From: an uncultured Clostridia bacterium
GTDB lineage: Bacteria; Bacillota; Clostridia; Christensenellales; Aristaeellaceae
Assembly: GCA_947167215.1 (NCBI GenBank)
Contig: CAMVHE010000006.1
Location: forward strand, 1 to 64,000
Length of the DNA stretch: 64,000 nucleotides
Direction: 5' to 3'
Part shown: piece by piece, positions 25,388 to 48,289 of the stretch
How positions within the stretch are numbered: the first letter of the stretch is position 1
Layout of the letters: every line of letters starts with the position of its first letter
Notes under the pieces: model-generated
The model's input: the letters and a program-made list of their open reading frames with translations, nothing else
Databases searched by the model: none
Told to the model about the DNA's origin: nothing
Made by a program: the position numbers and the translations under genes

Positions 25388-25434
25388 TTGACAGAAAAGC
25401 TGGACAGTGCTAGACTATAGAAAACGTTTTCTAT
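25388..25434 (+). promoter_or_regulatory. Promoter and 18-bp palindromic operator of the first LacI regulator
   Basis: TTGACA (25388-25393), 17 bases, TAGACT (25411-25416), followed at once by the perfect palindrome ATAGAAAACGTTTTCTAT (25417-25434). The palindrome covers the expected transcription start, the standard position for repression. An identical copy lies at 26491-26508. Confidence 0.8.
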
Positions 25435-25445
25435 GGAGCAAAAGC

Positions 25446-26453: not shown

Positions 26454-26455
26454 AA

Positions 26456-26480
26456 ATAAAAGCAGAGACCCTGCTTTTAT
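26456..26480 (+). terminator. Hairpin between the regulator and the ABC operon
   Basis: ATAAAAGCAG (26456-26465) and CTGCTTTTAT (26471-26480) pair perfectly around AGACC. T residues lie within the descending arm. It probably limits read-through into the operon, which has its own operator. Confidence 0.6.
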
Positions 26481-26490
26481 ATAGGACAGA

Positions 26491-26508
26491 ATAGAAAACG
26501 TTTTCTAT
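26491..26508 (+). promoter_or_regulatory. LacI operator, second identical copy
   Basis: ATAGAAAACGTTTTCTAT, identical over all 18 bases to 25417-25434, 17 bases before the permease ATG. No separate promoter with good -35/-10 boxes is evident, so the site may act as a roadblock to transcripts reading from the regulator gene or control a weak local start. Confidence 0.8.
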
Positions 26509-26525
26509 CATGGAGGAGTTCAAAT

Positions 26526-27305: not shown

Positions 27306-27308
27306 GCG

Positions 27309-28112: not shown

Positions 28113-28178
28113 TCTCCGGACCACATCGATATGATAGGAACACATTACCCAACGACCAACGGAAAAGGAGCTGTCAAA

Positions 28179-29171: not shown

Positions 29172-29196
29172 GAAACAGGGAAAGGAGGCCGCGGAG

Positions 29197-29979: not shown

Positions 29980-29984
29980 TTCGG

Positions 29985-30941: not shown

Positions 30942-31879
30942 TCCGCTCTATATGCCTGAATCCCACCATTGACAGGACTTACTATGTGGATGACTTTATT
31001 CCCGGCAATCCGTATCGCAATACCAAAGTGGTGGTGGATGTAGGAGGCAAGGGCATCAATGTAGCCAAGGTGGCTGCAGGCCTGTGCGTGCCGGTGGTCT
31101 GCTATGGTTTCCTCGGACGGGAAAACGGCAGAAAGGTGAAGGATGCACTCCTTGCCATGCACGCCGACGTCCGTTTCCGGGAAGTTCCGGGGGAAACGAG
31201 AACGACGGTGAATATTATTGACCATGCCGCACAGAAGGAAACCGAGATCCTGGAGGCAGGACCCCGGATCGGGGAAGCCGAAGCGGAAGAACTTCTTAAA
31301 ATGATCAGCGGGGATATTCAGCAGGATGATATTGTGATCTGCTCCGGGCTTTATGCTCCAGGGATTCCGGATGACTATTATGCACGGATCAGCCGGGCAT
31401 GCCGGGAAAAAGGAGCGTACTGCATTCTGGATTCGAATGGAAAAGATCTCCGGAATGCCCTGGATGGTTCGTACTGGATGATAAAGCCGAATGCCAGAGA
31501 GCTCTGCGAAATCAATGATGTTCCCGTTACGGAAGAGGAAGAAAAACTCATCCCCCTCGGACAGAAACTTCTCGGAAATACAAAGCATGTGCTGGTTTCC
31601 ATGGGAAGCCGAGGAGGACTCCTGATTTCCTGCGGTGAAGTATACTGTATCCATGTTCCCAGAGTGCAGGCACTGTCTACCATTGGAAGCGGTGATTCGG
31701 TTGTCGCAGGCTTTGCGGTCGGTATACAGAGAGGGCTGTCCATTCCCGAATGTGCAAGGCTTGCCCTGGCCTGCGGGACAGCAAACGCACTGACTGAAAA
31801 AGTTGCCATGCTGAACAGGAGAGACATAGAGAAAATATTACCTGAGATAAAGATTGAAAGAATAAGGACAAACGGCTGA
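30938..31879 (+). CDS. PfkB-family sugar kinase (1-phosphofructokinase-like)
   Basis: 313 aa of the PfkB/ribokinase family, closest in layout to 1-phosphofructokinase or tagatose-6-phosphate kinase: SICLNPTIDRTYYVDDF, the glycine-rich VVDVGGKGINVAKV near residue 38, and TIGSGDSVVAGFAVG with catalytic Asp near residue 248. It overlaps the aldolase by four bases and is the last gene before a strong terminator. Together with the aldolase it would phosphorylate a ketose phosphate (or analogue) and split it. No isomerase is present in the operon; that step may be encoded elsewhere or be unnecessary. Confidence 0.88.
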   Translation: MIRSICLNPTIDRTYYVDDFIPGNPYRNTKVVVDVGGKGINVAKVAAGLCVPVVCYGFLGRENGRKVKDALLAMHADVRFREVPGETRTTVNIIDHAAQKETEILEAGPRIGEAEAEELLKMISGDIQQDDIVICSGLYAPGIPDDYYARISRACREKGAYCILDSNGKDLRNALDGSYWMIKPNARELCEINDVPVTEEEEKLIPLGQKLLGNTKHVLVSMGSRGGLLISCGEVYCIHVPRVQALSTIGSGDSVVAGFAVGIQRGLSIPECARLALACGTANALTEKVAMLNRRDIEKILPEIKIERIRTNG

Positions 31880-34872: not shown

Positions 34873-36150
34873 TCATTGTGATTCTGAAGAGGAATATAAG
34901 GGCAGATGCTGACGAAGAAGCGAATAAGGAAGCTGATGTACAGAGTTCCCTGACTGACAGCACAGGGCGGCTGCTGTACCGGCAGACTGCCCTAAAGCCA
35001 TGCAGGTGCCCTGTACCCGTGTGGATGCATGTGCCGAATGATTCACAGAAATGGCGCGCCCTGTGACCAGAAGATTGTCATATACGGGAGAAATGAGGGA
35101 GCGGTAAGAAATCGGTCCGGGCTGCTCCAGTTCCAGTAAGGTCTGCCCGTCATCATACGGATGATGGATATCAATGGGGTGGGCGGCATAGGCAACAGGG
35201 TCGGGTATGACAGAGTCAGCGTTCCAGTCATTTTCCGTAACGGTATGAACACCCTCCAAATGGCACCCCTCACGAATGCCAATCAGGGGAGCAGAGTAAG
35301 AGATGCTGCAGTTATGAAACTCAGCATAATGTGAACGCAAAAGTTCCACAAGCTGAAACATATCTTCCCGCATTTGGCATACTGCCCGGGTTATGGAGTC
35401 TTCATCGTCTGCAGCGGGGGTGCAGCGGGTCATATTGACTGCAAGACGGTCGCCATGCAGGAGTGTATTCACCCAGGGACCACCAAAGTCGGGAGCTGTG
35501 CCGTTGCTGTGTTCTCTTTTCAGAAATTCACGAAGCTCAGTGCAGACAGAACGCTGTCCCTGTTTTCCATTGTGATGTATGTGGGTTTTGAGCAAAGCGG
35601 TACTGCAGTCCACACCGGATAATTCAAAGCATAGGGTCAGCGGCTGGGAGGCTTTGGAACAGGACTGAATTCCGAGCTTTCTGCAAAGGACTCCTTCTCC
35701 GGTTGCATCAATGAAGTAGTTGGAGGTAATTGTCCAGGTGCCTGTAAAACCTGCAATCTGAATGGAGAGAATATGCCGATCCTGTGCATTTAATTCGGTA
35801 ATGAGAGAGTCCGTGAGAAGATGAACACCTGATTCAATGACCATCCGCTGCGCAATCAGTTTGTAAACTTCGGGATCAAAGGAAATATGTCCTCTTGGGT
35901 ACTCTATCAGCGCAGCGTTTTCGGCCTGCAGCCGCTGGATCAGTTCCCAGGGAATACCATCGACAACCCGCCTGCCATTGAAGAAGAAACCGCTGACAGG
36001 TACTACAAGACTGGCTGTGGCGGCACCGCCCAGGAACCCGAACCGTTCAACCAGACAGGTGCGGCATCCGGACCGTGCCGAGGCAATTGCTGCAGTAATT
36101 CCGGAAGGGCCGCCGCCGCAGACGATCACATCGAAATGCTGGTTTGACAT
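34873..36150 (-). CDS. FAD-dependent oxidoreductase (FAD_oxidored type), divergent member of regulon 2
   Basis: 425 aa. N-terminal dinucleotide-binding motif VIVCGGGPSGITAAIASARS with LVERFGFLGGAATASL next, and a C-terminal GRAISVNHSAHASTRVQGTC ... ALGQSAGTAA segment. This is the pattern of the FAD_oxidored (PF12831-like) family, common beside sugar importers and sulfatases in gut bacteria. It has no signal peptide, so it is cytosolic. The start at 36150 has AAAGGAGGG upstream; the longer frame enters the promoter. The promoter carries an operator between -35 and -10, so it is controlled with the operon on the other strand. The likely role is oxidation or reduction of a sugar carbon. Confidence 0.85.
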   Translation of the reverse strand: MSNQHFDVIVCGGGPSGITAAIASARSGCRTCLVERFGFLGGAATASLVVPVSGFFFNGRRVVDGIPWELIQRLQAENAALIEYPRGHISFDPEVYKLIAQRMVIESGVHLLTDSLITELNAQDRHILSIQIAGFTGTWTITSNYFIDATGEGVLCRKLGIQSCSKASQPLTLCFELSGVDCSTALLKTHIHHNGKQGQRSVCTELREFLKREHSNGTAPDFGGPWVNTLLHGDRLAVNMTRCTPAADDEDSITRAVCQMREDMFQLVELLRSHYAEFHNCSISYSAPLIGIREGCHLEGVHTVTENDWNADSVIPDPVAYAAHPIDIHHPYDDGQTLLELEQPGPISYRSLISPVYDNLLVTGRAISVNHSAHASTRVQGTCMALGQSAGTAAALCCQSGNSVHQLPYSLLRQHLPLYSSSESQ

Positions 36151-36172
36151 GTTTTTCCCTCCTTTGGGGGTC

Positions 36173-36201
36173 ATGGTAGAATGGAATATTCCAATTGTCA
36201 A
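36173..36201 (-). promoter_or_regulatory. Promoter with operator in spacer, divergent FAD oxidoreductase
   Basis: Minus strand TTGACA (36201-36196), 17 bases, TACCAT (36178-36173). The spacer contains the palindrome TGGAATATTCCA (36182-36193). The related palindrome at 36287 lies in the opposite promoter. Confidence 0.8.
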
Positions 36202-36279
36202 GAAAAACAGACAAATGAACAATATATATAAATTAATATGATATAATATGTGCAAAAACGATAAACTAAAAAAGTGCTA

Positions 36280-36308
36280 TTGACATTTGGAATGTTCCAA
36301 AATAGCAT
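36280..36308 (+). promoter_or_regulatory. Promoter with operator in spacer, second LacI gene
   Basis: TTGACA (36280-36285), 17 bases, TAGCAT (36303-36308), with TTGGAATGTTCCAA (36287-36300) filling the spacer. This placement would block RNA polymerase directly and implies autorepression. Confidence 0.82.
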
Positions 36309-36336
36309 AAATTTAGCAAAAATGACGGAGACATTT

Positions 36337-37383
36337 ATGGCTACAATCTGGGATGTTGCCAATCTGGCAGGAGTATCAAAGAGTACTGTTTCGCTGGTTG
36401 TTAACCGCAGCCCGCTGGTAAAGGAAACGACAAGACAGAAAGTGCAGGAGGCAATCCGTATTCTTGATTATGTCCCAAACTATAATGCCAGAAGCCTGAC
36501 CAAAAGGAAAAACAACAGCATTGGCATCATTCATATGCGCCGCAGTACGCGGGCAGCGACGCAGTGCTATGAATGGGACTGCAGCATAGAACAGTTTTTT
36601 CATGATATTGAGGAAAGTGTATGTTCTGCTGTAGTTGATCTGAATGAAGATCTGAGCATTGTGAAGGAGCATCTTCATTCAGGGACAGATGCTCCTGCGA
36701 TGGCGAAGATTATCCGGGACCGTAGAGTGGATGGCGTGATTTTCGTAGGAGGCATGGATGATGCTGCCGAACTGGTACAGGTTCAGAAAGTGGATATTCC
36801 GGTTGTCCTTGCAACATCCAAGCTGAATCTGGAAGGAATTGACCTGGTCATGCATGACCCATCCGGCGGAACGCGTCTTGCAGTGGAGAAGCTGATCGAT
36901 ACCGGACATCAGAGAATCTGCCTGATTAACTGTCCGCAGAGATTCAGAATCTGGCCGGCAAGAATACAGGGCCTGCATGATGCCATGGCAGGAAAAGGAA
37001 AAATACAGGACCCGAGATTAATGGTTTCTGTGGACCAGATGAATGCACATAATGCTTATGACACATTTGCCCGGGTCCTGGACTCGGGCGTGAAACCGGA
37101 TGCGGTAGTAACCGCTAACCCGGATCTTGCCATGGGGGTACTTCATTGTCTTTATGACAGAAGAATCCGTATTCCGGATGATATATCTGTCATCTGCTAT
37201 GAAGACTCCGGAATATGCGGAAGCATGAGCCCGCCACTGAGTGCGGTGAATATCCGAAAAGAAGAAATGGGACGAACAGCACTGAATTTTCTGCTCGATC
37301 GGATAAGCCATCCGGAAACCAAACACAGAAAAATGACAGTTGAGCCTTATCTGGTTATGAGAGGCAGCGTGAAAACCCGGTGA
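36337..37383 (+). CDS. LacI-family transcriptional regulator (regulon 2)
   Basis: 348 aa. Residues 3-23 are the helix-turn-helix (TIWDVANLAGVSKSTVSLVV), with the hinge helix YNARSLTKRK near residue 55 and a sugar-binding-protein-like sensor domain after that (DGVIFVGGMDDAAELV; GHQRICLINCPQRFRIWPAR). The start ATG 36337 follows ACGGAGAC and lies about 28 bases from the -10; earlier ATGs sit in or next to the promoter. The operators at 36182, 36287 and 37478 (TTGGAA-N2-TTCCAA type) are its likely targets: the divergent oxidoreductase, its own gene and the main operon. Confidence 0.87.
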   Translation: MATIWDVANLAGVSKSTVSLVVNRSPLVKETTRQKVQEAIRILDYVPNYNARSLTKRKNNSIGIIHMRRSTRAATQCYEWDCSIEQFFHDIEESVCSAVVDLNEDLSIVKEHLHSGTDAPAMAKIIRDRRVDGVIFVGGMDDAAELVQVQKVDIPVVLATSKLNLEGIDLVMHDPSGGTRLAVEKLIDTGHQRICLINCPQRFRIWPARIQGLHDAMAGKGKIQDPRLMVSVDQMNAHNAYDTFARVLDSGVKPDAVVTANPDLAMGVLHCLYDRRIRIPDDISVICYEDSGICGSMSPPLSAVNIRKEEMGRTALNFLLDRISHPETKHRKMTVEPYLVMRGSVKTR

Positions 37384-37397
37384 CTGTTTCACCGGGT
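37375..37397 (+). terminator. Hairpin over the regulator's stop codon
   Basis: ACCCGGTGA (37375-37383) and TCACCGGGT (37389-37397) pair perfectly. No T-run follows, so termination is likely partial. Confidence 0.45.
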
Positions 37398-37477
37398 ACA
37401 ATGGCAGTCCCAGACAGGAGTCCGGGAGAAAGAGAAACGGTCGTAAAAAGCGGATATTGATTTTCATTAAGCATTTA

Positions 37478-37491
37478 TTGGAACGATCCAA
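37478..37491 (+). promoter_or_regulatory. Third operator of regulon 2
   Basis: TTGGAACGATCCAA lies 20 bases before the main operon's first ATG. Half sites match 36287-36300; only the central bases differ. The surrounding sequence is AT-rich but I could not fix a -35/-10 pair. Confidence 0.7.
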
Positions 37492-37511
37492 ATCTGAAAG
37501 GAAAAGGAAAA

Positions 37512-38897
37512 ATGGATGCATTGGGGATAAACGTCCGGGAACCGGCGGAGTTTAAAACGGAGGTGCTGGTGATAGGCGGAGGTCCCGCCGGCTGTATGGC
37601 TGCAATCAGTGCAGCGAGAAATGGCCGGGACACCATTCTTGTAGAAGAGAATGGATTCTGCGGAGGAATGGCGACCGCGGGCCTGGTGGGACCGTTTATG
37701 ACCTGCTACGACCGGACCGGGGAAGAAATGGTTGTGAGAGGGCTTTTTGAGGAACTGGTAAACCGTCTGGTCGAAAGACATGGAGCAATTCATCCCTCCT
37801 GCATACGTGCAGGAACCCCATATGTTTCATGGATCGAAGAAGGACATGATCACTGTACGCCGTTTGATGCCGAAAAGATGAAAAAGCTTCTGGAAGAAAT
37901 GCTCATTGAAAGCGGAGTTCATCTGCTGTATCACACAGTCTTCATTGAAACGCTTATGAGAGGAAATCTGGTTGAAGGCGCCGTGGTCAAAACCAGATCC
38001 GGAATAAAGAAAATCCGGACCGGGGTGGTCATTGACTGCACGGGGGACGGAAATGCTGCAGTGAGTGCCGGAGCGGAATTTGTCAGCGGAAACGGAGAAA
38101 ATGCAGTCCAGCCGGCAAGCATGTTTTTCCGTATCTGCAATGTGGACAGTGAACGCCTCGAGGCAGACATTGAAGCCCACCGTCATCTTTTCCGCCGGGA
38201 AAACGGCGTTGCCTACCGCTGCTTCCACTGGCTGGTTGACGAGGCAAAAAAAAGAGGAGAATGGCACATCAACCGGGCAAGCATCGGCCTTTACAAAGGA
38301 GTGGCCCCGGATGAATGGTGTGTAAATACTTCGCGGGTCCTGGGAGTGGATTCAACGGATTCGCTCAGCCTCACAGCAGGGGAGGTGGAAGGGCGGAGAC
38401 AGGTTGAGGAAATCATGCAGTTTTTGCATAAATATGTTCCGGGATGCGAAAACGTAAAACTGATGGCCAGCGGTTCAACGCTTGGTATCCGGGAAAGCAG
38501 ACATATCTGCGGAGATTACTGGATGAAAGCAGAAGATATTATCGACGGCCGCATTCCGCCGGACACGATTGCGGTATGTTCCAATTCGGTAGATGTTCAC
38601 GGAAAACTGGGGCCAAATACGACAGAGTATATTACCATGAAGCAGGGAAGATACTATGGTATACCGTATCGCAGCTTACTGGTGAAGGGCATCGAAGGAA
38701 TGCTGGTCGCGGGGCGCTGTCTTTCTGCGGATTACAAGGCGGCAGGGGCGGTCCGCGTAATGCCGCCCTGTATGGCCATGGGGCAGGCGGCAGGGACAGC
38801 TGCGGCGATTTCCGTAAGAGACGAAAGTACGCCGAGAGCGCTGGACCCGGAAAAGGTCCGGACGCAGCTGAGAAAGGATGGCGCTTTTCTTCCCTGA
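37512..38897 (+). CDS. FAD-dependent oxidoreductase (FAD_oxidored type), first gene of the main operon
   Basis: 461 aa. The dinucleotide motif VLVIGGGPAGCMAAISAARN near residue 16 and VEENGFCGGMATAGLVGPFM are followed by a C-terminal MLVAGRCLSADYKAAGAVRV ... MGQAAGTAAA. Middle residues include SGSTLGIRESRHICGDYWM, a conserved block in this family (SGS-LG-RESR). It is homologous to the enzymes at 34873 and 45526. No signal peptide. Purine-rich GAAAGGAAAAGG precedes ATG 37512. As the first gene of the sulfated-sugar operon it probably acts on the imported sugar or its derivative, by hydroxyl oxidation or the reverse; the exact chemistry is unknown. Confidence 0.85.
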   Translation: MDALGINVREPAEFKTEVLVIGGGPAGCMAAISAARNGRDTILVEENGFCGGMATAGLVGPFMTCYDRTGEEMVVRGLFEELVNRLVERHGAIHPSCIRAGTPYVSWIEEGHDHCTPFDAEKMKKLLEEMLIESGVHLLYHTVFIETLMRGNLVEGAVVKTRSGIKKIRTGVVIDCTGDGNAAVSAGAEFVSGNGENAVQPASMFFRICNVDSERLEADIEAHRHLFRRENGVAYRCFHWLVDEAKKRGEWHINRASIGLYKGVAPDEWCVNTSRVLGVDSTDSLSLTAGEVEGRRQVEEIMQFLHKYVPGCENVKLMASGSTLGIRESRHICGDYWMKAEDIIDGRIPPDTIAVCSNSVDVHGKLGPNTTEYITMKQGRYYGIPYRSLLVKGIEGMLVAGRCLSADYKAAGAVRVMPPCMAMGQAAGTAAAISVRDESTPRALDPEKVRTQLRKDGAFLP

Positions 38898-38953
38898 GAT
38901 GAACAGGATGTTGCATGCACAAAGCATGAACAAAATAGAAGGAGGGAAAACCT

Positions 38954-40309
38954 ATGAGAAAAATGTTGTCTTTGGTATTGGCACTGATGATGATTCTGGG
39001 GCTGATGGCATATGCGGCTGCAGAAAGTGCGCAGCCGGATATCACGACGTGGATCTTTGCCAATGAAGATCCGAACATGAAAGGCACGGTGAGGTTCTAT
39101 ATTCCATTTTCCGGCAAGCAGGGAATGGATGCCATGATTGCGGAGTTCAACAAAAGCTATCCCAATATCACGATTGAACTGAATACCTACAGCAACAACG
39201 CAGACGGAAATATCGCATTGAACAGCGAAATTAACTCGCAGCAGTGTGATGTCGTAGCATCTTTTGAGATCCATAACCTCATGAACCGGCTGAACAACGG
39301 CATGTATCTGGATTTAACGGACCGCATTGAAGCAGAAGGCATTTCCCTGATGGATAACTGGGGAACCGAGGCATACAACATGGACGGCAAAGTATATGTC
39401 CTGCCATGCGGCGGCCTTACCCACTTTGTTGCCATCAAAAAGAATGCATGGGAAGCTGCCGGACTGGGCGACTATCCCACCGACTGGACATGGGACGAGT
39501 ATATTGAAGCAAGCCGGGCAATGACTGTGCGTGATGAAGCCGGAAACACTACGGTTTACGGCGGCAGCCAGTATCAGGTCATTTCGGACCTTCTGGATTC
39601 GGTTTATCAGGTAAACGGCTGCAACCGTTTCTATCGTGCGGATGGAAGCTGCATCTTTGACGAACCGTGGATCAAAACACTGATACAGAAAAACATCGAT
39701 GCAGAAAAAGAAGGCATCTGGTATAAGATGGACGCTTACCGGAGCGATAATTACAAGACATGGTTTGCTTATACGGATGGAACCGTCAATTCCACCGTGG
39801 GATGCAACCTGATCCGTTTCCTGCGTGACACGGAGACCTACCCGATGGATACGCTGACGGTGTTTGCACCGTATCCGGTAGTGGAAAAAGGCCAGGTAAA
39901 CTACGAGTCCGGTATCAATTATTTCTCCTTTGTCGGCATGACCCGCGGATGCCAGGATCCGGAGGCAGCCTGGGCATGGATCAAATGGTACAGCACCTAT
40001 GGCTCCAAATATCTGACGCTGGCAGGACATCAGTCCACGTGGAAGGGAACCGACTCCGGCGCGCTGGTGGATCTGATCTTCGGCTCAGAAGAGGAAGCGG
40101 CAAAAATTGTTGACGTGGAATCCTTTAAAAAATGGGTAGGCAATCCCAATAATCCGTCTGCTTATACGGACAATGCAACAGCATACTCGAAACTCAGTTC
40201 TATCTGGGATGAATATGTGATGTATGCATTTACGGGAGATATGACAGTGGATGAGGCACTCGATGAAGCTGCCCGTCTTGGCAATCGTGCCATTGCAGAC
40301 GCTGAATAA
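38954..40309 (+). CDS. Sugar ABC transporter substrate-binding protein (family 1)
   Basis: 451 aa. Signal peptide MRKMLSLVLALMMILGLMAY-AAA without a clear lipobox Cys. The mature part follows the extracellular solute-binding family 1 pattern: GTVRFYIPFSGKQGMDAMIA, FNKSYPNITIELNTYSN, PTDWTWDEYIEASRAMTV. It captures an oligosaccharide or sugar for the two permeases that follow. No matching ATPase gene is in the operon; a shared MsmK-type ATPase elsewhere is likely, as is usual for this class. GGAGGG precedes ATG 38954. Confidence 0.88.
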   Translation: MRKMLSLVLALMMILGLMAYAAAESAQPDITTWIFANEDPNMKGTVRFYIPFSGKQGMDAMIAEFNKSYPNITIELNTYSNNADGNIALNSEINSQQCDVVASFEIHNLMNRLNNGMYLDLTDRIEAEGISLMDNWGTEAYNMDGKVYVLPCGGLTHFVAIKKNAWEAAGLGDYPTDWTWDEYIEASRAMTVRDEAGNTTVYGGSQYQVISDLLDSVYQVNGCNRFYRADGSCIFDEPWIKTLIQKNIDAEKEGIWYKMDAYRSDNYKTWFAYTDGTVNSTVGCNLIRFLRDTETYPMDTLTVFAPYPVVEKGQVNYESGINYFSFVGMTRGCQDPEAAWAWIKWYSTYGSKYLTLAGHQSTWKGTDSGALVDLIFGSEEEAAKIVDVESFKKWVGNPNNPSAYTDNATAYSKLSSIWDEYVMYAFTGDMTVDEALDEAARLGNRAIADAE

Positions 40310-40323
40310 GCAGAATGCCACTT

Positions 40324-40353
40324 CCCGGGAAGAAGACATCCCTTCTTCCCGGG
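40324..40353 (+). terminator. Hairpin between binding protein and permease genes
   Basis: CCCGGGAAGAA (40324-40334) and TTCTTCCCGGG (40343-40353) form an 11-bp stem followed by ATTTTC. Such hairpins often lower permease relative to binding-protein expression. Confidence 0.65.
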
Positions 40354-40419
40354 ATTTTCAAAAGCTGCACAGCGGCAGATGCCTGTGTTTACGAGGATGC
40401 GCACGGAGGGTGTGAGACT

Positions 40420-41304
40420 ATGAATAAACGAAAAGAAAACCTGGCTGGATATGCTTTCATTGCTCCGGCGCTTATTATTTTTCTGGCGTTGGTAGCGATT
40501 CCTTTCTTTTTTACAATCTACCTGTCTTTGACAAAATGGAACTTTCTGTCCGGCTGGGGCAATATCAAGTTTGTCGGTCTGAAGAACTTTGCCGATATGG
40601 CATTTGACCGCCGTTTCAAGTATGCAGTACAGAATGTTTTCATTTATTCTTTTTCCATTGTCCCCATTTCGATCCTGATGGCCTTACTGCTGGCCTATCT
40701 GCTGAATGACAAGGTTTTCGGAAAAACGGCACTGCGTTTTTGCTTTTTTATTCCCTATATTTCAAGCTCCGTGGCGCTGGCTGCCGTTTTCAAGTTTCTG
40801 TTCCGGGATAATGGCATTATCAATGCCATCCTGATGCAGGTATTCGGACTGCAGGAGTCCATTCATTGGTTTACAGACCTCAAGTTTTCAAAGGTCCCTA
40901 TCATTATTTTTGTTATCTGGGTACAGATTGGCTTTGAACTTATCATCTATATGGCCGCGCTGCAGAATGTGCCGAGGGACCTGTATGAAGCGGCAGAGAT
41001 AGACGGAGTAACCCCCTGGAAGAAGTTCTGGAGAATCACTTTTCCGATGATCAGCCCCACAACATTCTACCTGGTGGTTGTTCAGTTTATCCATGTGTTT
41101 AAGATATTTAATGCGATTGACATCATGTCCTTCGGCAATGTGACCGCGTATGGCAATACATCGTTGGTTCTGGAGATCTACAGCAACGCATTCAGCGATT
41201 ACAACTTCGGATATGCCAGCGCTGAGGCACTGGTACTGCTGGGGATCATTGCAGTAATGACGGCAATTAACTGGATCGGGCAGAAAAAGTGGGTTCATTA
41301 TTGA
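40420..41304 (+). CDS. Sugar ABC transporter permease (MalF/UgpA-like)
   Basis: 294 aa with six membrane helices. The N-terminus is LAGYAFIAPALIIFLALVAI; the coupling loop is EAAEIDGVTPWKKFWRITFP near residue 200, matching the EAA motif of the binding-protein-dependent family. ATG 40420 with CGGAGGG upstream was chosen over an ATG at 40315, which would overlap the hairpin. It works with the second permease and the binding protein to import a carbohydrate. Confidence 0.9.
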   Translation: MNKRKENLAGYAFIAPALIIFLALVAIPFFFTIYLSLTKWNFLSGWGNIKFVGLKNFADMAFDRRFKYAVQNVFIYSFSIVPISILMALLLAYLLNDKVFGKTALRFCFFIPYISSSVALAAVFKFLFRDNGIINAILMQVFGLQESIHWFTDLKFSKVPIIIFVIWVQIGFELIIYMAALQNVPRDLYEAAEIDGVTPWKKFWRITFPMISPTTFYLVVVQFIHVFKIFNAIDIMSFGNVTAYGNTSLVLEIYSNAFSDYNFGYASAEALVLLGIIAVMTAINWIGQKKWVHY

Positions 41305-41319
41305 TGGGAGGCGAGGAAA

Positions 41320-42147
41320 GTGAAGAAGAAAAAACTGACGGCCAGGATCCTATGTACGGTACTGGTTTCCCTCCTGGCATTACTGTTTGCCATGCCTCTG
41401 GTCTGGATGATCCTGGCATCGCTTAAGACCACACGGGAAGTCTTCGGAGAAAACTGGCTTCCGGCTGTACCGAAATGGGGCAATTACCGGGAAGTATGGA
41501 CGAATTCACAGGTGAACCTGTTCCGTGTTTACAGAACCTCTCTGACCATCGTCATTCTGGGAACGAGCGGCCAGCTGATTATTTCTTCCCTGGCGGCATA
41601 TGCATTTGCAAAGATCCGGTTCAACGGGCGCAACGTGATATTTACGCTTTTCATGCTTTCCATGATGATCCCCGTCCAGGCGACGATCATCCCGAGGTAT
41701 ATGTTCTTTTACGAGATCGGACTCTATAATACCGTATGGGCGCTGATTCTCCCGGGATGGTTCGGTATTACTTCCATTTTTCTGCTGAGACAGTTCTACA
41801 TGAGCCTGCCCAATGAGCTGATGGAGGCTGCAAGAGTGGATGGAGCAGGGCATTTCCGGACTTTTCTGCAGGTAATGATGCCGCTGACAAAGCCTGCAAT
41901 GATTTCAACGGTGATTCTTTCCTTTATCACGACCTGGAATGATTATCTTTCCGCCCTGATTTTTCTTCCCAACAAAAAGCTCTATACAGTCGCCCAGAGC
42001 GTGAGATTCTGGCTGTTTGACGGTGACCAGCGCTATGAACTGACGATGGCGACTGCTACCAGTGTGGTTGTTCCGGTAGTGATTCTGTTTTTCTTCTGCC
42101 AGAAGTATTTCGTTGAAGGACTTGCGACATCCGGCGTGAAAGGTTAA
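41320..42147 (+). CDS. Sugar ABC transporter permease (MalG/UgpE-like)
   Basis: 275 aa with six helices. The EAA-type loop is MEAARVDGAGHFRTFLQVMM near residue 168, and the C-terminal YFVEGLATSGVKG is typical of the MalG side. GTG 41320 follows GAGGAAA and lies 15 bases after the first permease. A partner of the preceding permease. Confidence 0.9.
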   Translation: MKKKKLTARILCTVLVSLLALLFAMPLVWMILASLKTTREVFGENWLPAVPKWGNYREVWTNSQVNLFRVYRTSLTIVILGTSGQLIISSLAAYAFAKIRFNGRNVIFTLFMLSMMIPVQATIIPRYMFFYEIGLYNTVWALILPGWFGITSIFLLRQFYMSLPNELMEAARVDGAGHFRTFLQVMMPLTKPAMISTVILSFITTWNDYLSALIFLPNKKLYTVAQSVRFWLFDGDQRYELTMATATSVVVPVVILFFFCQKYFVEGLATSGVKG

Positions 42148-42151
42148 GGCA

Positions 42152-43834
42152 ATGGAAAAATCATACGTCATTGGACTGGACTATGGCTCTCTTTCCTGCA
42201 GGGGAATTCTGGTCTGTCTGCAGGATGGATGTACTGCAGCGGAAGCGGAATATGCTTTTCCTCATGGAGCCATTTCCCGTCATGCTCCGGATGGGACCGC
42301 ACTCCCGGAGGGATGGGTCCTTCAGGATCCTTCTGACTTTGAAGAAGCGCTTTTTACTACAGTGAGAGCACTTATGGAAAAGAGCCGTGCCGAACCTTCT
42401 GCGGTACTTGCAATTGGAATTGATACAACGGCAAGTACGGTTATTCCGGTAGATTCGGAACTGCGGCCGCTCTGTTATCAGCCCCGGTGGAAAAGCAACC
42501 GGTATGCATGGCCAATGATGTGGAAACATCATGCATCCGCACCGTATGCCGTTGCCATGACAAAGGCGCTTTCCGAGAGAGGAAGTTCATTGCTTTCAAG
42601 ATATGGCGGTGCGATAGGTGCCGAATTTTTCCTGCCCAAGGTTGTCCAGATTGCAGTGGAAGAACCGGAGGTATACAAAGCGGCAGATACTTTTCTGGAA
42701 CTTGGGGATTATCTGGTCAGCCTGCTTGTCGGTCATGAAACAAGAAGCGGAACTATGCTGGAATGCAAAGCAGGGTGGACAAGGGATACGGGATACCTTT
42801 CTTCCGCATTCTTTGAGTCCATTGGTGTGCCGGATGTTCCCGGGGAGAAACTGATGGGAAGAGGGGGAAAGGAAGAAAGCGATTTCTGGCCCGGGGAAAA
42901 GGCAGGAACCCTATGCGAAGAAATGGCAGTAAAACTGGGCCTGAATTCCGGCACCGCAGTAACGGCGGCACAGATGGATGGATATGCGGGGCTTCCCGGC
43001 AGCGGTATATCTGAAGAAGGCAGACTGATGATGATGGTGGGAACATCCACTGCATATATGCTGCTTCAGCACCAGGGCAGGCCGATACCGGGAATCTGCG
43101 GCGCAACCGAAGACAGCATCCTGCCGGGGTATACCAGTTATGCGTGCGGCCAGGCCAGTGTGGGGGATGCCTTTGAATGGGCGGTGAACAATGTGTTTAC
43201 GGCTTCCTGTCGGCAAAAGGCACTTGAACAGGGCGTAAACCCGCATGAATACTTGTCGGGCCTCGCCGGGAAAATGAAACCGGGCGAATGCGGTCTGCTG
43301 GCATTGGACTGGCTGAATGGAAATAAAAGCATCCTGAATGATGCTGATTTATCCGGAATGATCCTGGGACTGACGCTGAGGACCCGTCCCGAACATATTT
43401 ACCGCAGCCTGATGGAAGCAACGGGATTCGGAGCGCGGAAGATTATCGAAAACCTGGAGAAGCAAGGTGTCCATGTGGGCGCGATAAGCGTTACAGGAGG
43501 CATTGCACGGAAAAACCAGGTGCTGATGCAGATGTATGCAGACATTCTCGGACGCGAGATAGGTGTGATGGAAGCGGAACAGACAGCAGCGCTTGGGGCT
43601 GCGGTATATGCAGCTGCAGCGGCGGGTGCCTTTCAGACGGTGGAGAACGCTGTTGAGAAGCTGGCAGACCATCCGGTCCGGACCTATTATCCCGATCCGG
43701 AAAACCACAGATTATATGATGTGCTTTATGAGCAATACAGCAGACTTCATGATCTGTTTGGAAGCGGTGAAAATTCGATGATGGCAACGCTTCGTGCTCT
43801 GGCCAAAGAAAACAGGGGGGAAAGTCATGAGTAA
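42152..43834 (+). CDS. Ribulokinase-like FGGY sugar kinase
   Basis: 560 aa, the size of AraB-type ribulokinases. Matches are VIGLDYGSLSCRGILVCLQD at the N-terminus, ALPEGWVLQDPSDFEEAL, IGIDTTAST near residue 90, PMMWKHHASAPYAV, and the FGGY C-terminal domain with VGTSTAYMLL and ISVTGGIARKNQ. It phosphorylates a keto- or ketopentose-like sugar with ATP in the cytosol. It starts 5 bases after the permease and overlaps the sulfatase gene by 8 bases. No isomerase is in the operon; one or more of the FAD oxidoreductases might supply the keto sugar, though this is inference. Ribulokinase identity is by family resemblance and not proof of substrate. Confidence 0.85.
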   Translation: MEKSYVIGLDYGSLSCRGILVCLQDGCTAAEAEYAFPHGAISRHAPDGTALPEGWVLQDPSDFEEALFTTVRALMEKSRAEPSAVLAIGIDTTASTVIPVDSELRPLCYQPRWKSNRYAWPMMWKHHASAPYAVAMTKALSERGSSLLSRYGGAIGAEFFLPKVVQIAVEEPEVYKAADTFLELGDYLVSLLVGHETRSGTMLECKAGWTRDTGYLSSAFFESIGVPDVPGEKLMGRGGKEESDFWPGEKAGTLCEEMAVKLGLNSGTAVTAAQMDGYAGLPGSGISEEGRLMMMVGTSTAYMLLQHQGRPIPGICGATEDSILPGYTSYACGQASVGDAFEWAVNNVFTASCRQKALEQGVNPHEYLSGLAGKMKPGECGLLALDWLNGNKSILNDADLSGMILGLTLRTRPEHIYRSLMEATGFGARKIIENLEKQGVHVGAISVTGGIARKNQVLMQMYADILGREIGVMEAEQTAALGAAVYAAAAAGAFQTVENAVEKLADHPVRTYYPDPENHRLYDVLYEQYSRLHDLFGSGENSMMATLRALAKENRGESHE

Positions 43835-45317
43835 AGGAAAACATGTACTGATGATTATGACGGACCAGCAGAGGTTTGATACGATTCATGCACTGGGGTG
43901 TGAGAAAGCGATAACACCGAATCTGGATGCACTTGCAGAAGACAGCCGTGTCTTTACCCACTGTTATACCAGCAGCCCTGTCTGTGCGCCGGCGAGACTG
44001 TCATTGTACAGCGGACTGTATCCTGCAAAACATGGCAGTGCCAACAACAGCCCGAACCTCTGCTACACCGGGGACGGTATGTATGGAATCATGAGTGATG
44101 CGGGTGTGGATACGCTGGCAATCGGGAAAATGCATTTCATTCAGGGCAGATACGAACTCCACGGGCTTCAGCGAAGAATTACCCAGGAAGAACTTCCGAA
44201 TCCGGAAAATGATGATTACACGAAGTTCCTGATGAATACCGATTATCGCTATGTTATCGATTACAATGGACAGCGGAGTGAAATGTATTACATTCCGCAG
44301 ATTTCCCAGCTGCCGCAGCAACTGCATCCGACGCAATGGATCGGCGACAGGGCAGTAGAGGCAGTGAAGGAACTGGACCCGGAAAGAAATCAGTTTCTCT
44401 TTGTATCCTTTATCCATCCCCATCCGCCGTTTGCCCCGCCGGTTCCCTGGAATAAAATCCACCGGGAAGAATTGTACGAGCCTTTTGTCCCGGAGCATCC
44501 GGAGAATGTGATAACCTATCATAATTATCAGCAGAACACCTATAAGGGGCTGTCTTCCGGAGTGGATCTGCATCTGCTGACGGTAATGAAGAATTACTAT
44601 TATGACTGCATCACCTTTGTGGATTACCAGATAGGCAGAATCATTGCGGAACTGAAGGAAAAAGGGCTTTATGATGATACCTTGATCATATTTACATCGG
44701 ATCACGGGGAACTGCTGGGAGATTACCATTGCCTTGGAAAACGCACAATGCTGGACTGCGTGGCGCGGGTCCCGCTGATGATCCGAAAGCCGGGGGAGAC
44801 GGCCGGAATCATGGATGAGGTCTGTTCCAATGTGGATCTTTATCCGACGATTCTTGATTATATGGGCATCCCCGGGGAACCGGAGAGGGACGGAGTGGAT
44901 CTGTTTGGCAATCTGTCAGACAGGGAATTTGTCTATTCTCAGTATGCCAACGGAACAACCGGCCTCTATATGATAGCATCCCGGAAGGACAAGCTGATCT
45001 ATTCGGCTGTGGAGGATATGTATCAGTATTTTGATGCTTTCCCGGAAGCAGAGAACCGTTATTCGGAAGACAATCCGCGATGCCGGCAAATGAAAAAACT
45101 GCTGGATGCATATATTGCTTCGGATCAGGCGATAGACAAGGATGACAGAAAGATTGACCTTCAGGAATATCTGAAAGACTATCATTATCGCCTTGTCAAG
45201 CAGGACAGTGTAAACCGTGAAAAGGATGAAAAAGGTATGCTGCCGCCGGGATACACAATTGATACGGGCATTGTATATACCTGGATGAAGAAGGAAACGG
45301 ACGCCAAACCCTGGTAG
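43827..45317 (+). CDS. Type I sulfatase (Cys-type)
   Basis: 496 aa. The formylglycine motif is Cys53 in PVCAPARLSLYSG (C-A-P-A-R), a variant of CxPxR. Metal-site sequences are MIMTDQQRF near the N-terminus (Asp13) and IFTSDHGELLGDYH near residue 290. It needs an anaerobic sulfatase-maturating enzyme, not seen here. There is no signal peptide, so it acts in the cytosol after import, which matches a pathway that imports sulfated sugar first. Its start overlaps the FGGY kinase by 8 bases (GGGGGAAAG upstream); the longer frame from 43794 is not supported. Confidence 0.9.
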   Translation: MSKGKHVLMIMTDQQRFDTIHALGCEKAITPNLDALAEDSRVFTHCYTSSPVCAPARLSLYSGLYPAKHGSANNSPNLCYTGDGMYGIMSDAGVDTLAIGKMHFIQGRYELHGLQRRITQEELPNPENDDYTKFLMNTDYRYVIDYNGQRSEMYYIPQISQLPQQLHPTQWIGDRAVEAVKELDPERNQFLFVSFIHPHPPFAPPVPWNKIHREELYEPFVPEHPENVITYHNYQQNTYKGLSSGVDLHLLTVMKNYYYDCITFVDYQIGRIIAELKEKGLYDDTLIIFTSDHGELLGDYHCLGKRTMLDCVARVPLMIRKPGETAGIMDEVCSNVDLYPTILDYMGIPGEPERDGVDLFGNLSDREFVYSQYANGTTGLYMIASRKDKLIYSAVEDMYQYFDAFPEAENRYSEDNPRCRQMKKLLDAYIASDQAIDKDDRKIDLQEYLKDYHYRLVKQDSVNREKDEKGMLPPGYTIDTGIVYTWMKKETDAKPW

Positions 45318-45430
45318 GACGGTATCGGACATCCGGGGATGATTCAGCGCACGCGGTGCACGGAATAACAGAAATCAGAGAAAACAGAACTGGCAGCAGG
45401 ATGCCGGTGTACATGTGCCGGGAAACGCAG

Positions 45431-45450
45431 AAAACAGGGGTTTCTGTTTT
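45431..45450 (+). terminator. Weak internal hairpin
   Basis: AAAACAG (45431-45437) and CTGTTTT (45444-45450) pair around GGGTTT. It lies in the 208-base gap between sulfatase and FAD oxidoreductase and may attenuate the distal genes. Confidence 0.4.
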
Positions 45451-45525
45451 TGCCCGCAAAAAAGCAAACGGAGCAATCCGGCCCATAAACAGAAAAAGCA
45501 GGCACATGGGCAAGGAGGAGTAAGG

Positions 45526-46809
45526 ATGAGAGTCTACAGCGATCATTATAATGTAGTGGTGTGCGGCGGCGGTCCTTCCGGTATCGCGGCAGCAGTGGCG
45601 GCTGCCCGTATGGGAGCAAAGACAGCACTCGTAGAGCGGTATGGTATTGTCGGGGGCATGATGACTTCCGGGTATGTCAACCCCATTCTGGGCTCAGTTT
45701 CACAGGGAACGATGTATGACGAGATAATACAGCTTCTTGGCGCTACCGGGATGAAGACAAGAAACGGATGGGAAATGAGTGTTGATGCGGAAGAAGCAAA
45801 ATACCGTCTGCTGCGCTTTGTGGAAGAGGCAGGAGTAGATATCTTTCTCCAGACACCCATTGTTGAAGTACAGAAAAATGACAGAAGTGTGACAGGCATA
45901 CGGATCGGAACACAGGAAGGGCTGAAAACGCTTTATGCAGATGTGACAGTGGATGCTACAGGCGACGGGTTTGTGGCAGCACGTGCAGGAGCGTCTTTCC
46001 AGATTGGACGGGATGCAGATGGCCTTTGTCAGCCGGCAACCCTGGAGTTTGTGGTGGGACCGGTTGACGAGGAAAAGGCGATAACCTGCTGGGGAGGAAC
46101 GGACCCGGTACGTCTGCCGGACGGAACGCCATATGTGGAATTCTGCGCACAGGCAAATGCGCGTGGAGAACTGCCGGAGAATGTTGCGGTAGTAAGACTG
46201 CACCGTACCGGATGGCCGGGAGAGCGGAGCATTAATGCCACGCAGGTCAATGGATGCAATACATTGAGCCCGGAAGGAGCATTGGATGCAGAACTGGAAT
46301 TGCGCAGACAGGTGGAAAGCATTGTGCGATTCCTTCGGAAATATGTTCCCGGCTATGAAGAATCCAGGCTGAAGGGTTCAGGCAGTACGCTTGGAGTGAG
46401 AGAATCCCGCAGAATTATGGGAGATTATATTCTGCAGGATGCGGATGTGGAAAACGGGAACGTACAGAAGGATGCAATAGTGCACAAAGCGTGGTTTCTG
46501 ATTGACATCCACAATCCCAAGGGAAGCGGACAGGCGGAAGGGCATTCTCATCCGGCAAAACCATATGATATACCTTACCGCTGCCTTCTTCCGAAAGGCG
46601 TTGAAGGAATGCTGACCTGCGGGCGCTGCATCTCCGGCACGCATCGTGCCCATGCCAGTTACAGGGTAATGGGAATATGCCTTGCAACAGGTCAGGCGGC
46701 GGGTGTGGCAGCTGCACTTGCCGCGCAGAGAGGCGTAACGCCGAGAGCGCTGCCTGCAGAGGCAGTGCAGAAAGCGTTGACGGAAAGCGGCGTAAAACTC
46801 TTTGACTGA
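45526..46809 (+). CDS. FAD-dependent oxidoreductase (FAD_oxidored type), third copy
   Basis: 427 aa. Dinucleotide motif VVVCGGGPSGIAAAVAAARM near residue 10, then LVERYGIVGGMMTSGYVNPI. The conserved middle block is GSGSTLGVRESRRIMGDYIL and the C-terminal end GRCISGTHRAHASYRVMGIC with ATGQAAGVAAAL. It is a full-length homologue of the enzymes at 34873 and 37512 but clearly diverged from both. AAGGAGGAG precedes ATG 45526. It is cytosolic. Its position between two sulfatases suggests that it works on the same sulfated sugar, perhaps at a different carbon. Confidence 0.85.
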   Translation: MRVYSDHYNVVVCGGGPSGIAAAVAAARMGAKTALVERYGIVGGMMTSGYVNPILGSVSQGTMYDEIIQLLGATGMKTRNGWEMSVDAEEAKYRLLRFVEEAGVDIFLQTPIVEVQKNDRSVTGIRIGTQEGLKTLYADVTVDATGDGFVAARAGASFQIGRDADGLCQPATLEFVVGPVDEEKAITCWGGTDPVRLPDGTPYVEFCAQANARGELPENVAVVRLHRTGWPGERSINATQVNGCNTLSPEGALDAELELRRQVESIVRFLRKYVPGYEESRLKGSGSTLGVRESRRIMGDYILQDADVENGNVQKDAIVHKAWFLIDIHNPKGSGQAEGHSHPAKPYDIPYRCLLPKGVEGMLTCGRCISGTHRAHASYRVMGICLATGQAAGVAAALAAQRGVTPRALPAEAVQKALTESGVKLFD

Positions 46810-46870
46810 GGAGCATCTGTGCAGCAACAGGATGCCGGCCGGCATATGCATGTGAATGGAGGAAAAACTC

Positions 46871-48289
46871 ATGAAAAAGCGGCCTAATATTCTCTGGCTT
46901 TGTTCGGATCAGCAGCGTTTTGATACGATCCATGCATTAGGCAATCCGGTGATTGATACACCGAATTTTGACCGGCTGTGTGAAAATGGAGTTGCCTTTG
47001 AAACGGTATATTGTCAGAACCCGGTATGCACACCCAGCCGGGCCAGCTTTCTCAGCGGCAAATATCCTTCTTCGATTAATGCAAATATTCTTGGAGCAGA
47101 GAATAACCCTGAACACTGCACCCTGATACCCAAGGCATTGAAGGACAGCGGATACCACTGCGGAAACATTGGAAAACTGCATATTTCGGCTGCCTGGTAC
47201 GGGTATGAGAAGCGGGGGGATGATGGCTACGATGAATTTATCTACAGCCTCGGTTCGGGCCATCAGCTTGAAGACGGATACAGCGAATATGCTAATTGGC
47301 TGAAGGAAAAAGGAATTGATTTTCATACGATCTTTACCAATGAAGGCGGAGATTACTACTGGTACAGGGAAGATGCACCCGTAGATCTGCGGCAGACAGC
47401 ATGGTGCGCAGAAAAAGCAGTGGAGTTCATGGAAAAAAACAAGGACAGACCATGGTTTTTAAGCGTCAATTGTTTTGATCCCCATCCTCCCTATGATGCG
47501 CCGCTTGAACTGGTGAACAAGTACCTGCAGAAAGGCGTTCCCGAACCGATATACAACCCCTCCGATGAAGAACTTTTCAGGAAGCTTCCGGCAATGCATC
47601 ATCAGACGAGATGGGTAAGTGCTCCGGGTGAGGAAATGCGGCGAAACAAGGCATCTTATTACGGATGCTGCGAAATAGTGGACAGGCATTATGGATGGAT
47701 TGTGGACGCTGTGGACCGTCTCGGACTCAGAGAAGATACCATCATAATATTTACATCGGATCACGGAGAAATGCTGGGAGACCATGGCCTGAAACTGAAG
47801 GGATGCAGATTTTACGAGGGGGCGGTTCATGTACCTTTGATCATTTCCTGTCCTTCCCGTTTTTATACAGGCAAGCAGGTGTCCGGACTGGTTGAACTCA
47901 CCGATCTGGCTCCGACAATTGCAGAAATATGCGGAATCGATTTTCCGGATACGCACGGACACAGTCTTCTGCCTCATTTGTGCGACTGTGGAAGGGAGGC
48001 CTACAGACGGGAATATGCCCGGTGTGAATACTATGCTTCGAATATGAACAGCGATCTGGGACCGGTTCCTTCCTATGCCACGATGTTCAGGACGGAACGA
48101 TATAAGCTGATTACCTATCATGGTATAGATGCCGGGGAATTGTATGATATGGAAAATGACCCTGAAGAAACGAATAACCTGTGGGATGATCCCAACTATG
48201 AAAAACTGCGGTTTGAGCTGGTAAAGCGATCTTTCGATGTGGCTATGGTTGTACAGCGCCCGGGACAGAAACGGGTTGGGAGGTATTAA
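46871..48289 (+). CDS. Type I sulfatase (Cys-type), second copy
   Basis: 472 aa. Formylglycine motif Cys53 in PVCTPSRASFLSG, the canonical C-T-P-S-R. Metal-binding stretches are WLCSDQQRFDTI at the N-terminus (Asp13) and IFTSDHGEMLGDHG near residue 295. No signal peptide. It shares only general family identity with the other sulfatase, so two different ester positions or two sugars are likely. ATG 46871 follows GGAGGAAAAA. It is the last recognised gene of the operon. Its stop overlaps the ATG of a 26-codon frame. Confidence 0.9.
   Translation: MKKRPNILWLCSDQQRFDTIHALGNPVIDTPNFDRLCENGVAFETVYCQNPVCTPSRASFLSGKYPSSINANILGAENNPEHCTLIPKALKDSGYHCGNIGKLHISAAWYGYEKRGDDGYDEFIYSLGSGHQLEDGYSEYANWLKEKGIDFHTIFTNEGGDYYWYREDAPVDLRQTAWCAEKAVEFMEKNKDRPWFLSVNCFDPHPPYDAPLELVNKYLQKGVPEPIYNPSDEELFRKLPAMHHQTRWVSAPGEEMRRNKASYYGCCEIVDRHYGWIVDAVDRLGLREDTIIIFTSDHGEMLGDHGLKLKGCRFYEGAVHVPLIISCPSRFYTGKQVSGLVELTDLAPTIAEICGIDFPDTHGHSLLPHLCDCGREAYRREYARCEYYASNMNSDLGPVPSYATMFRTERYKLITYHGIDAGELYDMENDPEETNNLWDDPNYEKLRFELVKRSFDVAMVVQRPGQKRVGRY

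What the first reader, a model, noticed from the sequence alone, without database searches (positions are those of the whole stretch)
34873..48289. Sulfated-sugar regulon with three FAD oxidoreductases, two sulfatases, FGGY kinase and no glycosidase
Three homologous FAD-dependent oxidoreductases flank or interleave with a sugar importer, a ribulokinase-like kinase and two Cys-type sulfatases, all under one LacI-like regulator. Neither sulfatase has a signal peptide, so desulfation would occur after import, unusual among characterised gut sulfatase loci where enzymes are exported. No isomerase, aldolase or glycoside hydrolase is present. A redox step may replace the isomerase and provide the keto sugar for the kinase. 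This would be a distinct catabolic design.
Basis: partly seen in the sequence, partly recalled or inferred. Interest (0 to 1): 0.72.

Follow-up and report, generated by a model that had tools for sequence, protein, structure and literature searches.

The report
Flavoenzyme-trio sugar regulon with cytosolic sulfatases
A gut bacterium carries a tightly regulated set of genes that appears to import a sulfated sugar, strip its sulfate inside the cell and rework it with a trio of flavin enzymes before phosphorylating it; related gene sets recur in other bacteria, but the sugar and the chemistry of the flavin enzymes are unknown.

Summary
Observation confirmed: the ten genes are present as described, with no isomerase, aldolase or glycosidase inside the coordinates. 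An aldolase and a PfkB kinase lie 3-5 kb upstream, outside the regulon.

The regulon is supported: the palindrome TTGGAAYRTTCCAA sits at three places in the locus, its only matches (up to one mismatch) in the 3.83-Mb genome, and it precedes lacI in two related loci. Binding is untested.

The recurrent core is importer + LacI + FGGY kinase + PF12831 flavoenzymes. In 391 genomes of the class, all eight non-window FADox1 matches lie within 5.9 kb of FADox2 and FADox3; one locus outside that sample (L128) has FADox1 and FADox2 without FADox3 in the stretch held.

The kinase is an unusual ribulokinase relative: six of six FADox-linked loci compared carry Tyr and Ala where 28 of 28 others carry His and Glu.

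Sulfatases look accessory: the genome of near-syntenic L039 has no Sulf1 match. In Bacteroidota, FADox2 orthologues carry Tat motifs and often lie beside a sulfatase and a GH27-like gene.

"Redox replaces the isomerase" is plausible, unproven; redox-elimination deglycosylation is the main rival. Cytosolic gut sulfatases have precedent in Bifidobacterium breve.

The parts
34873..36150 (-). FADox1, PF12831 FAD-dependent oxidoreductase, divergent from lacI
   Evidence: 316 bits, whole ORF 34873-36255; start at 36150 after GGAGGG; clade FADox1
36181..36194 (.). operator-like palindrome ATGGAATATTCCAA inside the FADox1 promoter-like site
36287..36300 (.). operator-like palindrome TTGGAATGTTCCAA inside the lacI promoter-like site
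   Evidence: conserved in L039 and L044
36337..37383 (+). LacI-family regulator (ORF listed from 36274; start at 36322 or 36337)
37478..37491 (.). operator-like palindrome TTGGAACGATCCAA upstream of FADox2
37512..38897 (+). FADox2, PF12831; orthologues in Bacillota (no Tat motif) and in Bacteroidota and Kiritimatiellota (mostly with Tat motif)
   Evidence: model pLDDT 92
38954..40309 (+). extracellular solute-binding protein with N-terminal signal-like sequence (by eye)
40315..41304 (+). CUT1-type permease 1
41320..42147 (+). CUT1-type permease 2
42152..43834 (+). FGGY kinase, ribulokinase-like, Tyr278/Ala331 pocket variant
43827..45317 (+). Sulf1, Cys-type sulfatase, CAPAR, no visible signal peptide
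45526..46809 (+). FADox3, PF12831
   Evidence: model pLDDT 90
46856..48289 (+). Sulf2, Cys-type sulfatase, CTPSR, no visible signal peptide

Best explanation
A dedicated, LacI-controlled catabolic regulon for one imported sugar or small glycoside that can carry sulfate. Steps: (1) a CUT1 ABC importer (ATPase encoded elsewhere) brings the substrate in; (2) two cytosolic formylglycine sulfatases, matured by the genome's anSME, remove sulfate; (3) a trio of PF12831 flavoenzymes remodels the sugar by oxidation and re-reduction at different carbons, in place of an aldose-ketose isomerase; (4) an FGGY kinase of a distinct ribulokinase-like subfamily phosphorylates the resulting keto sugar or polyol, which enters central metabolism, perhaps near fructose 6-phosphate. 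Shown by sequence: gene set, shared palindrome, recurrence of the trio, kinase pocket change, presence of anSME. Inferred: every reaction of the flavoenzymes, the order of steps, and the substrate.
For: Gene content. Three operator-like palindromes, the only genome-wide matches at up to 1 mismatch, control pattern 0, and the same motif in the lacI promoters of L039 and L044. FADox1 is matched in 9 of 391 genomes of the class; in the 8 other than the window's it lies within 5.9 kb (start to start) of both FADox2 and FADox3; in the window the gap to FADox3 is about 9.4 kb. Of all 11 loci with a FADox1 that I hold (window included), 10 have the whole trio. FADox1 and FADox3 are separate clades, so this is no recent tandem duplication. 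In relatives, redox enzymes for hexitol phosphates or polyols sit beside the core: sorbitol-6-phosphate dehydrogenase family over its cut-off in L044 and L114, a mannitol-1-phosphate 5-dehydrogenase-like protein just under cut-off in L039, Zn-dehydrogenases and PfkB in L072, L119, L121 and L122. No araA or araD hit (E<=1e-20) in the stretches held around the FADox-linked kinases. anSME over the TIGR03942 cut-off.
Against: The hexitol-phosphate dehydrogenases of the relatives are not found in this genome: no NF004817 match over cut-off (best 141 against 304 bits) and one Mannitol_dh hit of 70 bits in a 540-aa frame. The last steps here are unknown. No sugar enzyme appeared among the best solved-structure matches of the flavoenzymes, so sugar oxidation is unproven. 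L128 has FADox1 and FADox2 but no FADox3 in the 13 kb held, and FADox3 occurs without the others in 5 of 13 loci. Relatives with PF01261 proteins could be doing elimination chemistry. The locus is sporadic: FADox2 at E<=1e-90 in 9 of 100 family genomes and in none of 3 other genomes of the genus; a binning error of the MAG is not excluded.
Confidence: 0.5

Rival explanations
1. Redox-elimination deglycosylation: a flavoenzyme oxidises C3 (or another carbon) of an imported glycoside, the bond is broken by elimination, water is added and another oxidoreductase restores the sugar. This would explain why no glycosidase is present.
For: Design precedent: Agrobacterium operon with a flavoenzyme glycoside 3-dehydrogenase, a second oxidoreductase and two sugar phosphate isomerase/epimerase-like proteins acting as eliminase and (preliminary evidence) hydratase (passages of PMC10628242). 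PF01261 TIM-barrel proteins lie beside the flavoenzymes in L041, L042, L114 and L131 (Pfam); L048 and L117 were read by eye as such and used as seeds of a local profile, which also matched L116.
Against: The window locus has no PF01261 or other lyase candidate. The glycoside 3-oxidases described are GMC proteins, not PF12831 (abstract; for GlycDH recalled). Many FADox loci show no match to the local PF01261 profile.
Confidence: 0.27
2. The flavoenzymes act on a non-sugar part (aglycone, lipid headgroup or glycerol moiety) of an imported sulfated conjugate, and the kinase handles the released sugar or glycerol-like unit.
For: Glycerol-1-phosphate dehydrogenase-like (AraM) genes lie next to or a few genes from a flavoenzyme in L040, L041, L042, L046, L061 and L115, and in the L039 locus (L041's best NCBIfam model, 193 against 413 bits, is under cut-off); a GDPD gene in L129 (Pfam) and a similar one in L001; nearest folds include reductases of unsaturated substrates such as geranylgeranyl reductase and flavocytochrome c.
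Against: The importer is of the sugar type and the only kinase is a carbohydrate kinase; no aglycone-processing gene was recognised in the locus; fold similarity at this level shows no function.
Confidence: 0.15
3. An ordinary L-arabinose/L-ribulose locus with unrelated sulfatases and oxidoreductases nearby.
For: The kinase passes the NF003154 ribulokinase cut-off (538 against 428 bits).
Against: Below the TIGR01234 L-ribulokinase cut-off (491.5 against 583.25); His-to-Tyr and Glu-to-Ala pocket changes in all six FADox-linked loci compared and in none of 28 others; the shared palindrome ties the genes together.
Confidence: 0.03

Closest known systems
Intracellular sulfatase clusters of Bifidobacterium breve UCC2003 (GlcNAc-6-sulfate)
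   Same: Sulfatases are intracellular, so the sulfated sugar is handled inside the cell (review passage in PMC7326374)
   Different: The passage mentions no flavoenzyme trio or ribulokinase-like kinase; not compared by sequence here
Agrobacterium GlycDH / OGE / HYD / Gfo operon (3-keto-glycoside elimination)
   Same: Flavoenzyme oxidation of a sugar moiety plus further redox and isomerase-like proteins replace a glycosidase (PMC10628242 passages)
   Different: No PF01261 protein in the window; flavoenzyme of another family (PF12831; GlycDH as GMC is recalled); sulfatases present
L-arabinose operon kinases (AraB, L-ribulokinase)
   Same: FGGY kinase, the aligned Asp and Lys kept (Lys is Arg in L016 and L031), 36-43% identity
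   Different: Tyr278/Ala331 instead of His/Glu; no araA or araD hit beside it
[quoted passage not shown]
   Same: Relatives L044 and L114 carry sorbitol-6-phosphate dehydrogenase family members, L039 a mannitol-1-phosphate dehydrogenase-like protein; CUT1 import of polyols is known (PMC11519228 passages)
   Different: Not found in this genome
Bacteroidales SusCD loci with FADox2, sulfatase and GH27-like gene
   Same: FADox2 orthologue (53-57% identity in the Bacteroidales rows), often next to a sulfatase
   Different: FADox2 with Tat motif, sulfatase with lipoprotein-like start in the three loci read (L064, L074, L087), glycosidase-like gene present, no FGGY match to the local profile

Membership tests
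L-ribulokinase (AraB) | Passes the equivalog model TIGR01234 | tested here: not met
   491.5 against 583.25 bits; broader NF003154 passed
L-ribulokinase (AraB) | His and Glu of the ribulose pocket (role recalled, paper not held) | tested here: not met
   Tyr278 and Ala331 in window; 28 of 28 other kinases keep His/Glu
S1 formylglycine sulfatase | PF00884 and CxPxR motif | tested here: met
   157 and 155 bits; CAPAR, CTPSR
S1 formylglycine sulfatase | Maturase available in the genome | tested here: met
   anSME-like protein on contig C74: TIGR03942 369 against 349 bits; NF010321 417.5, under its 441
S1 formylglycine sulfatase | Sulfate ester hydrolysis rather than phosphonate/phosphodiester hydrolysis | not testable with these tools
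   PDB hits mix choline sulfatases and phosphonate monoester hydrolases
PF12831 FAD_oxidored | Full-length match over the gathering score | tested here: met
   all three proteins
CUT1 sugar ABC importer | SBP_bac_1 plus two BPD_transp_1 permeases | tested here: met
CUT1 sugar ABC importer | MsmK/UgpC-type ATPase | tested here: inconclusive
   none in the locus; an ORF at L001 1277-2431 was read by eye as UgpC/MsmK-like, not tested against a family
3-keto-glycoside elimination system | PF01261 or other eliminase next to the oxidoreductase | tested here: not met
   absent in the window, present in four relatives by Pfam
LacI single regulon | Shared palindromic operator at each promoter | tested here: met
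   three sites, genome-unique; binding itself untested

The most novel reading that the evidence does not exclude
PF12831 flavoenzyme trios form an undescribed redox module for sugar catabolism: three co-occurring flavoproteins carry out epimerisation/isomerisation or glycoside cleavage by serial oxidation and reduction, in the cytosol of Clostridia and, through Tat-exported FADox2, in the periplasm of Bacteroidota. The linked kinases form a new FGGY subfamily for the resulting keto sugar.
Probability: 0.36. Interest if true: 0.82.

Novelty: new variant of a known kind. Interest (0 to 1): 0.56.

Why it matters
Among the solved structures searched, none of the listed best matches to FADox2 or FADox3 goes beyond general FAD-enzyme similarity, and five searches of the open-access library aimed at the family or at flavoenzymes in such loci listed no paper that evidently describes their function there. 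The trio, the private operator and the kinase pocket signature turn a vague annotation ('FAD-dependent oxidoreductase') into a small, testable pathway. If a redox step replaces isomerase or glycosidase chemistry, it would add a route by which gut bacteria reach sulfated or rare sugars.

Tried and rejected
Plain arabinose pathway: rejected on kinase residues and lack of araA/araD hits. Recent tandem duplication of one oxidoreductase: rejected by the tree, where FADox1 and FADox3 are each one side of a branch at 98 and 100 support; the FADox2 label needs two changes because three long-branch rows (L002, L004 and the second L097 protein) attach outside. A substrate from homology: the binding protein and both sulfatases have only distant or mixed solved relatives. 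A catalytic clue from fold: both models are confident (pLDDT 92 and 90), but the listed nearest folds (geranylgeranyl reductase-like, EtfABCX, flavocytochrome c, halogenases, monooxygenases) include no sugar enzyme (50 rows each). By sequence, the profile searches matched mainly the N-terminal FAD region (best 60 of 191 and of 281 rows shown). A universal GxRExxR...DxH motif: a loose pattern gave mixed counts, so only alignment columns are quoted: in A1 (40 FADox2-type sequences) D361 and H363 are invariant, in A2 (16 FADox3 and 8 FADox1) D327 and H329. Hexitol-phosphate exit route in this genome: not found. Upstream aldolase/PfkB as part of the regulon: no operator match there.

Literature: searches listed no paper; 43 listed three, 44 one (a Brucella flavoproteome paper, not opened), 45 one, 33 nine, 63 fifteen of 3,074 and 90 five. 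Passages only were read of PMC7326374, PMC10628242, PMC10646112 and PMC11519228; everything else was listings with the starts of abstracts. The library lacks most subscription papers.

Limits of the counts. Class-wide searches scored only four first-look candidates per genome, so further paralogues may be missed, including FADox1 copies outside trios. One search gave 44 kinase matches in 36 of 297 genomes, of which 30 were returned as loci; one search used these plus kinases over 400 aa in other loci, so truncated kinases (for instance those of L050 and L131) fell out. L118 and L122 kinases are in that alignment but are of another FGGY type (L122 nearest to the xylulokinase model, under cut-off) and are left out of the six-against-28 count. 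L011 and L113 are one locus, as are L043 and L127. The loci come from patterns of one protein and are no random sample; some belong to one genome (L053, L099). Five of the eight non-window FADox1 genomes are one genus. The Tat count is a motif search; besides the rows quoted it also flagged 1 of 8 FADox2 of the window's family and the over-long FADox1 ORF of L044.
Full report
Observation. The ten-gene layout is as described: FADox1(-), lacI, FADox2, a solute-binding protein, two CUT1-type permeases, an FGGY kinase, Sulf1, FADox3 and Sulf2. The three oxidoreductases are full-length PF12831 proteins at 29-36% mutual identity. Both sulfatases carry CxPxR and no signal peptide was seen by eye. An anaerobic sulfatase maturase lies elsewhere in the genome (contig C74; TIGR03942 369 against 349 bits, though under the NF010321 cut-off), so cytosolic activation is possible. 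The ten proteins gave no isomerase, aldolase or glycosidase match. A class II ketose-bisphosphate aldolase and a PfkB hexose kinase lie 3-5 kb upstream in another cluster with its own LacI-type regulator. The genome is a MAG, 96.2% complete and 7.1% contaminated.

Regulon. The intergenic regions hold three near-identical palindromes: 36181 (ATGGAATATTCCAA), 36287 (TTGGAATGTTCCAA) and 37478 (TTGGAACGATCCAA). The first two lie within promoter-like sites for FADox1 and lacI (the promoter scan as a whole is not above chance, 21 against 17.9, sd 4.2). In the window the core pattern TGGAAYNNTCCA matches only these three sites (5 strand-matches, chance mean 0.40, 0 of 100 shuffles reach 5). TTGGAAYRTTCCAA with up to one mismatch occurs at three sites in the 3.83-Mb genome, all here, with 0 control matches. 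L044 has three core sites (6 strand-matches, 0 of 200 shuffles as many) and L039 one (2 strand-matches, 3 of 200 shuffles as many). Before lacI they read TATTGACTTTTGGAATGTTCCAA in both relatives and TATTGACATTTGGAATGTTCCAA in the window. I read this as a dedicated operator; binding is untested.

Recurrence. A scan with FADox2 gave 64 loci; by record title they include Bacillota, Bacteroidota, Kiritimatiellota, Verrucomicrobiota and Lentisphaerota. L044 keeps FADox1, lacI, FADox2, binding protein, permeases, FGGY, FADox3 and Sulf1 (67% over its length), with extra genes between; L039 keeps lacI through FADox3. In an even sample of 391 genomes of the class, FADox3 (E<=1e-90) is in 15, FADox2 (E<=1e-90) in 15 and FADox1 (E<=1e-60) in 9, each count including the window's genome and resting on four scored candidates per genome. 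In the 8 other genomes with FADox1, it lies within 5.9 kb, start to start, of both a FADox2 and a FADox3 match; five of these 8 are one genus. In the window FADox1 and FADox3 are about 9.4 kb apart. Of 16 non-window FADox3 matches 13 were fetched (L114-L126): 6 show the whole trio, L114 has FADox2 only, L115 a longer PF12831 protein ('FAD600') and 5 neither. Of the 11 loci held with a FADox1, 10 have the trio; L128 lacks FADox3 in the 13 kb held. The tree of 61 representatives out of 125 sequences puts FADox1, FADox3 and FAD600 each on one side of a branch (98, 100 and 100 support). Within the family FADox2 is sporadic: 9 of 100 genomes, none of 3 others of the genus.

Kinase. The window kinase's best solved match is a ribulokinase, 3qdk, but it is under the L-ribulokinase equivalog cut-off. 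In the alignment the six distinct FADox-linked ribulokinase-like loci (window, L039, L044, L043/L127, L113/L011, L129) all have Tyr at window position 278 and Ala at 331. The 28 other loci returned all have His and Glu, and 13 of these 28 have an araD hit within the short flanks held. That these positions touch the sugar is recalled, not read.

Sulfate. Sulf1 is found in L044's genome (67%) but not in that of L039. Of the eight genomes given, three match at E<=1e-20 and only L044's holds a close homologue; L044 shows no second sulfatase in the 16 kb downstream. The window's own genome has a second locus (L001) with a FAD600 protein, a binding protein, related permeases (51% and 49%) and a sulfatase. 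In Bacteroidota, 28 of 30 FADox2 sequences carry a twin-arginine motif before the FAD site (the other two are cut at contig ends) and in Kiritimatiellota 5 of 6, against 0 of 23 in named Bacillota. Of 27 Bacteroidota loci, 12 have a sulfatase and 15 a GH27-like gene by local profiles (one GH27-like and one metallo-beta-lactamase-like protein were checked in Pfam). FADox2 thus tends to be in the compartment where desulfation would happen. Sulfatases are common in such bacteria (recalled), so this association is suggestive only.

Chemistry. Relatives add redox enzymes or isomerase-like proteins: sorbitol-6-phosphate dehydrogenase family members over cut-off (L044, L114), a mannitol-1-phosphate 5-dehydrogenase-like protein just under its cut-offs (L039, best 364.7 against 368), Zn-dehydrogenases and PfkB kinases (L072, L119, L121, L122), AraM-like proteins (L040, L041, L042, L046, L061, L115, L039) and PF01261 TIM barrels confirmed in Pfam in L041, L042, L114 and L131. 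The hexitol-phosphate enzymes were not found in the window's genome. Two readings fit: redox conversion to a keto sugar for the kinase, or oxidation-elimination cleavage of a glycoside as in Agrobacterium (passages of PMC10628242). Structure models are confident, but the listed nearest folds are general FAD reductases, monooxygenases and halogenases.

Verdict. Its core is a flavoenzyme trio with a modified kinase and a private operator; sulfatases are an accessory. Cytosolic desulfation has precedent (PMC7326374 passage). Function of the trio is unproven.

Noticed in passing
window 25407-31879: Separate cluster: LacI-type regulator, ABC permease, ATPase, NMT1-type binding protein, alpha/beta hydrolase, class II ketose-bisphosphate aldolase and PfkB hexose kinase; no copy of the operator.
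   Followed up: partly
L001 (own genome contig C18) 108-14804: Second sulfatase locus: sugar kinase nearest to fructokinase (under cut-off), GDPD-like gene, HAD, 600-aa PF12831-type protein, importer with permeases 49-51% identical to the window's, sulfatase.
   Followed up: partly
L008 (own genome contig C74) 1-16927: anSME with two sulfatase-like genes and importer genes on the same stretch.
   Followed up: partly
L039 10952-11893, L044 10075-11043, L131 811-1752: About 313-322-aa protein beside the kinase in several FADox loci, without a Pfam match for the L039 and L131 copies, not seen in the window locus.
   Followed up: partly
L064, L087 and other Bacteroidota loci: SusCD loci with Tat-motif FADox2, sulfatase, GH27-like gene and repeated metallo-beta-lactamase-like proteins.
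   Followed up: partly
L139 5896-11965: 1060-aa protein with a sulfatase-like part after an importer, with a ribulokinase-like kinase on the other strand.
   Followed up: no
window 49181-52321: 1046-aa protein that looks like a helicase with an N-terminal nuclease-like part, directly downstream (read by eye, no family search).
   Followed up: no
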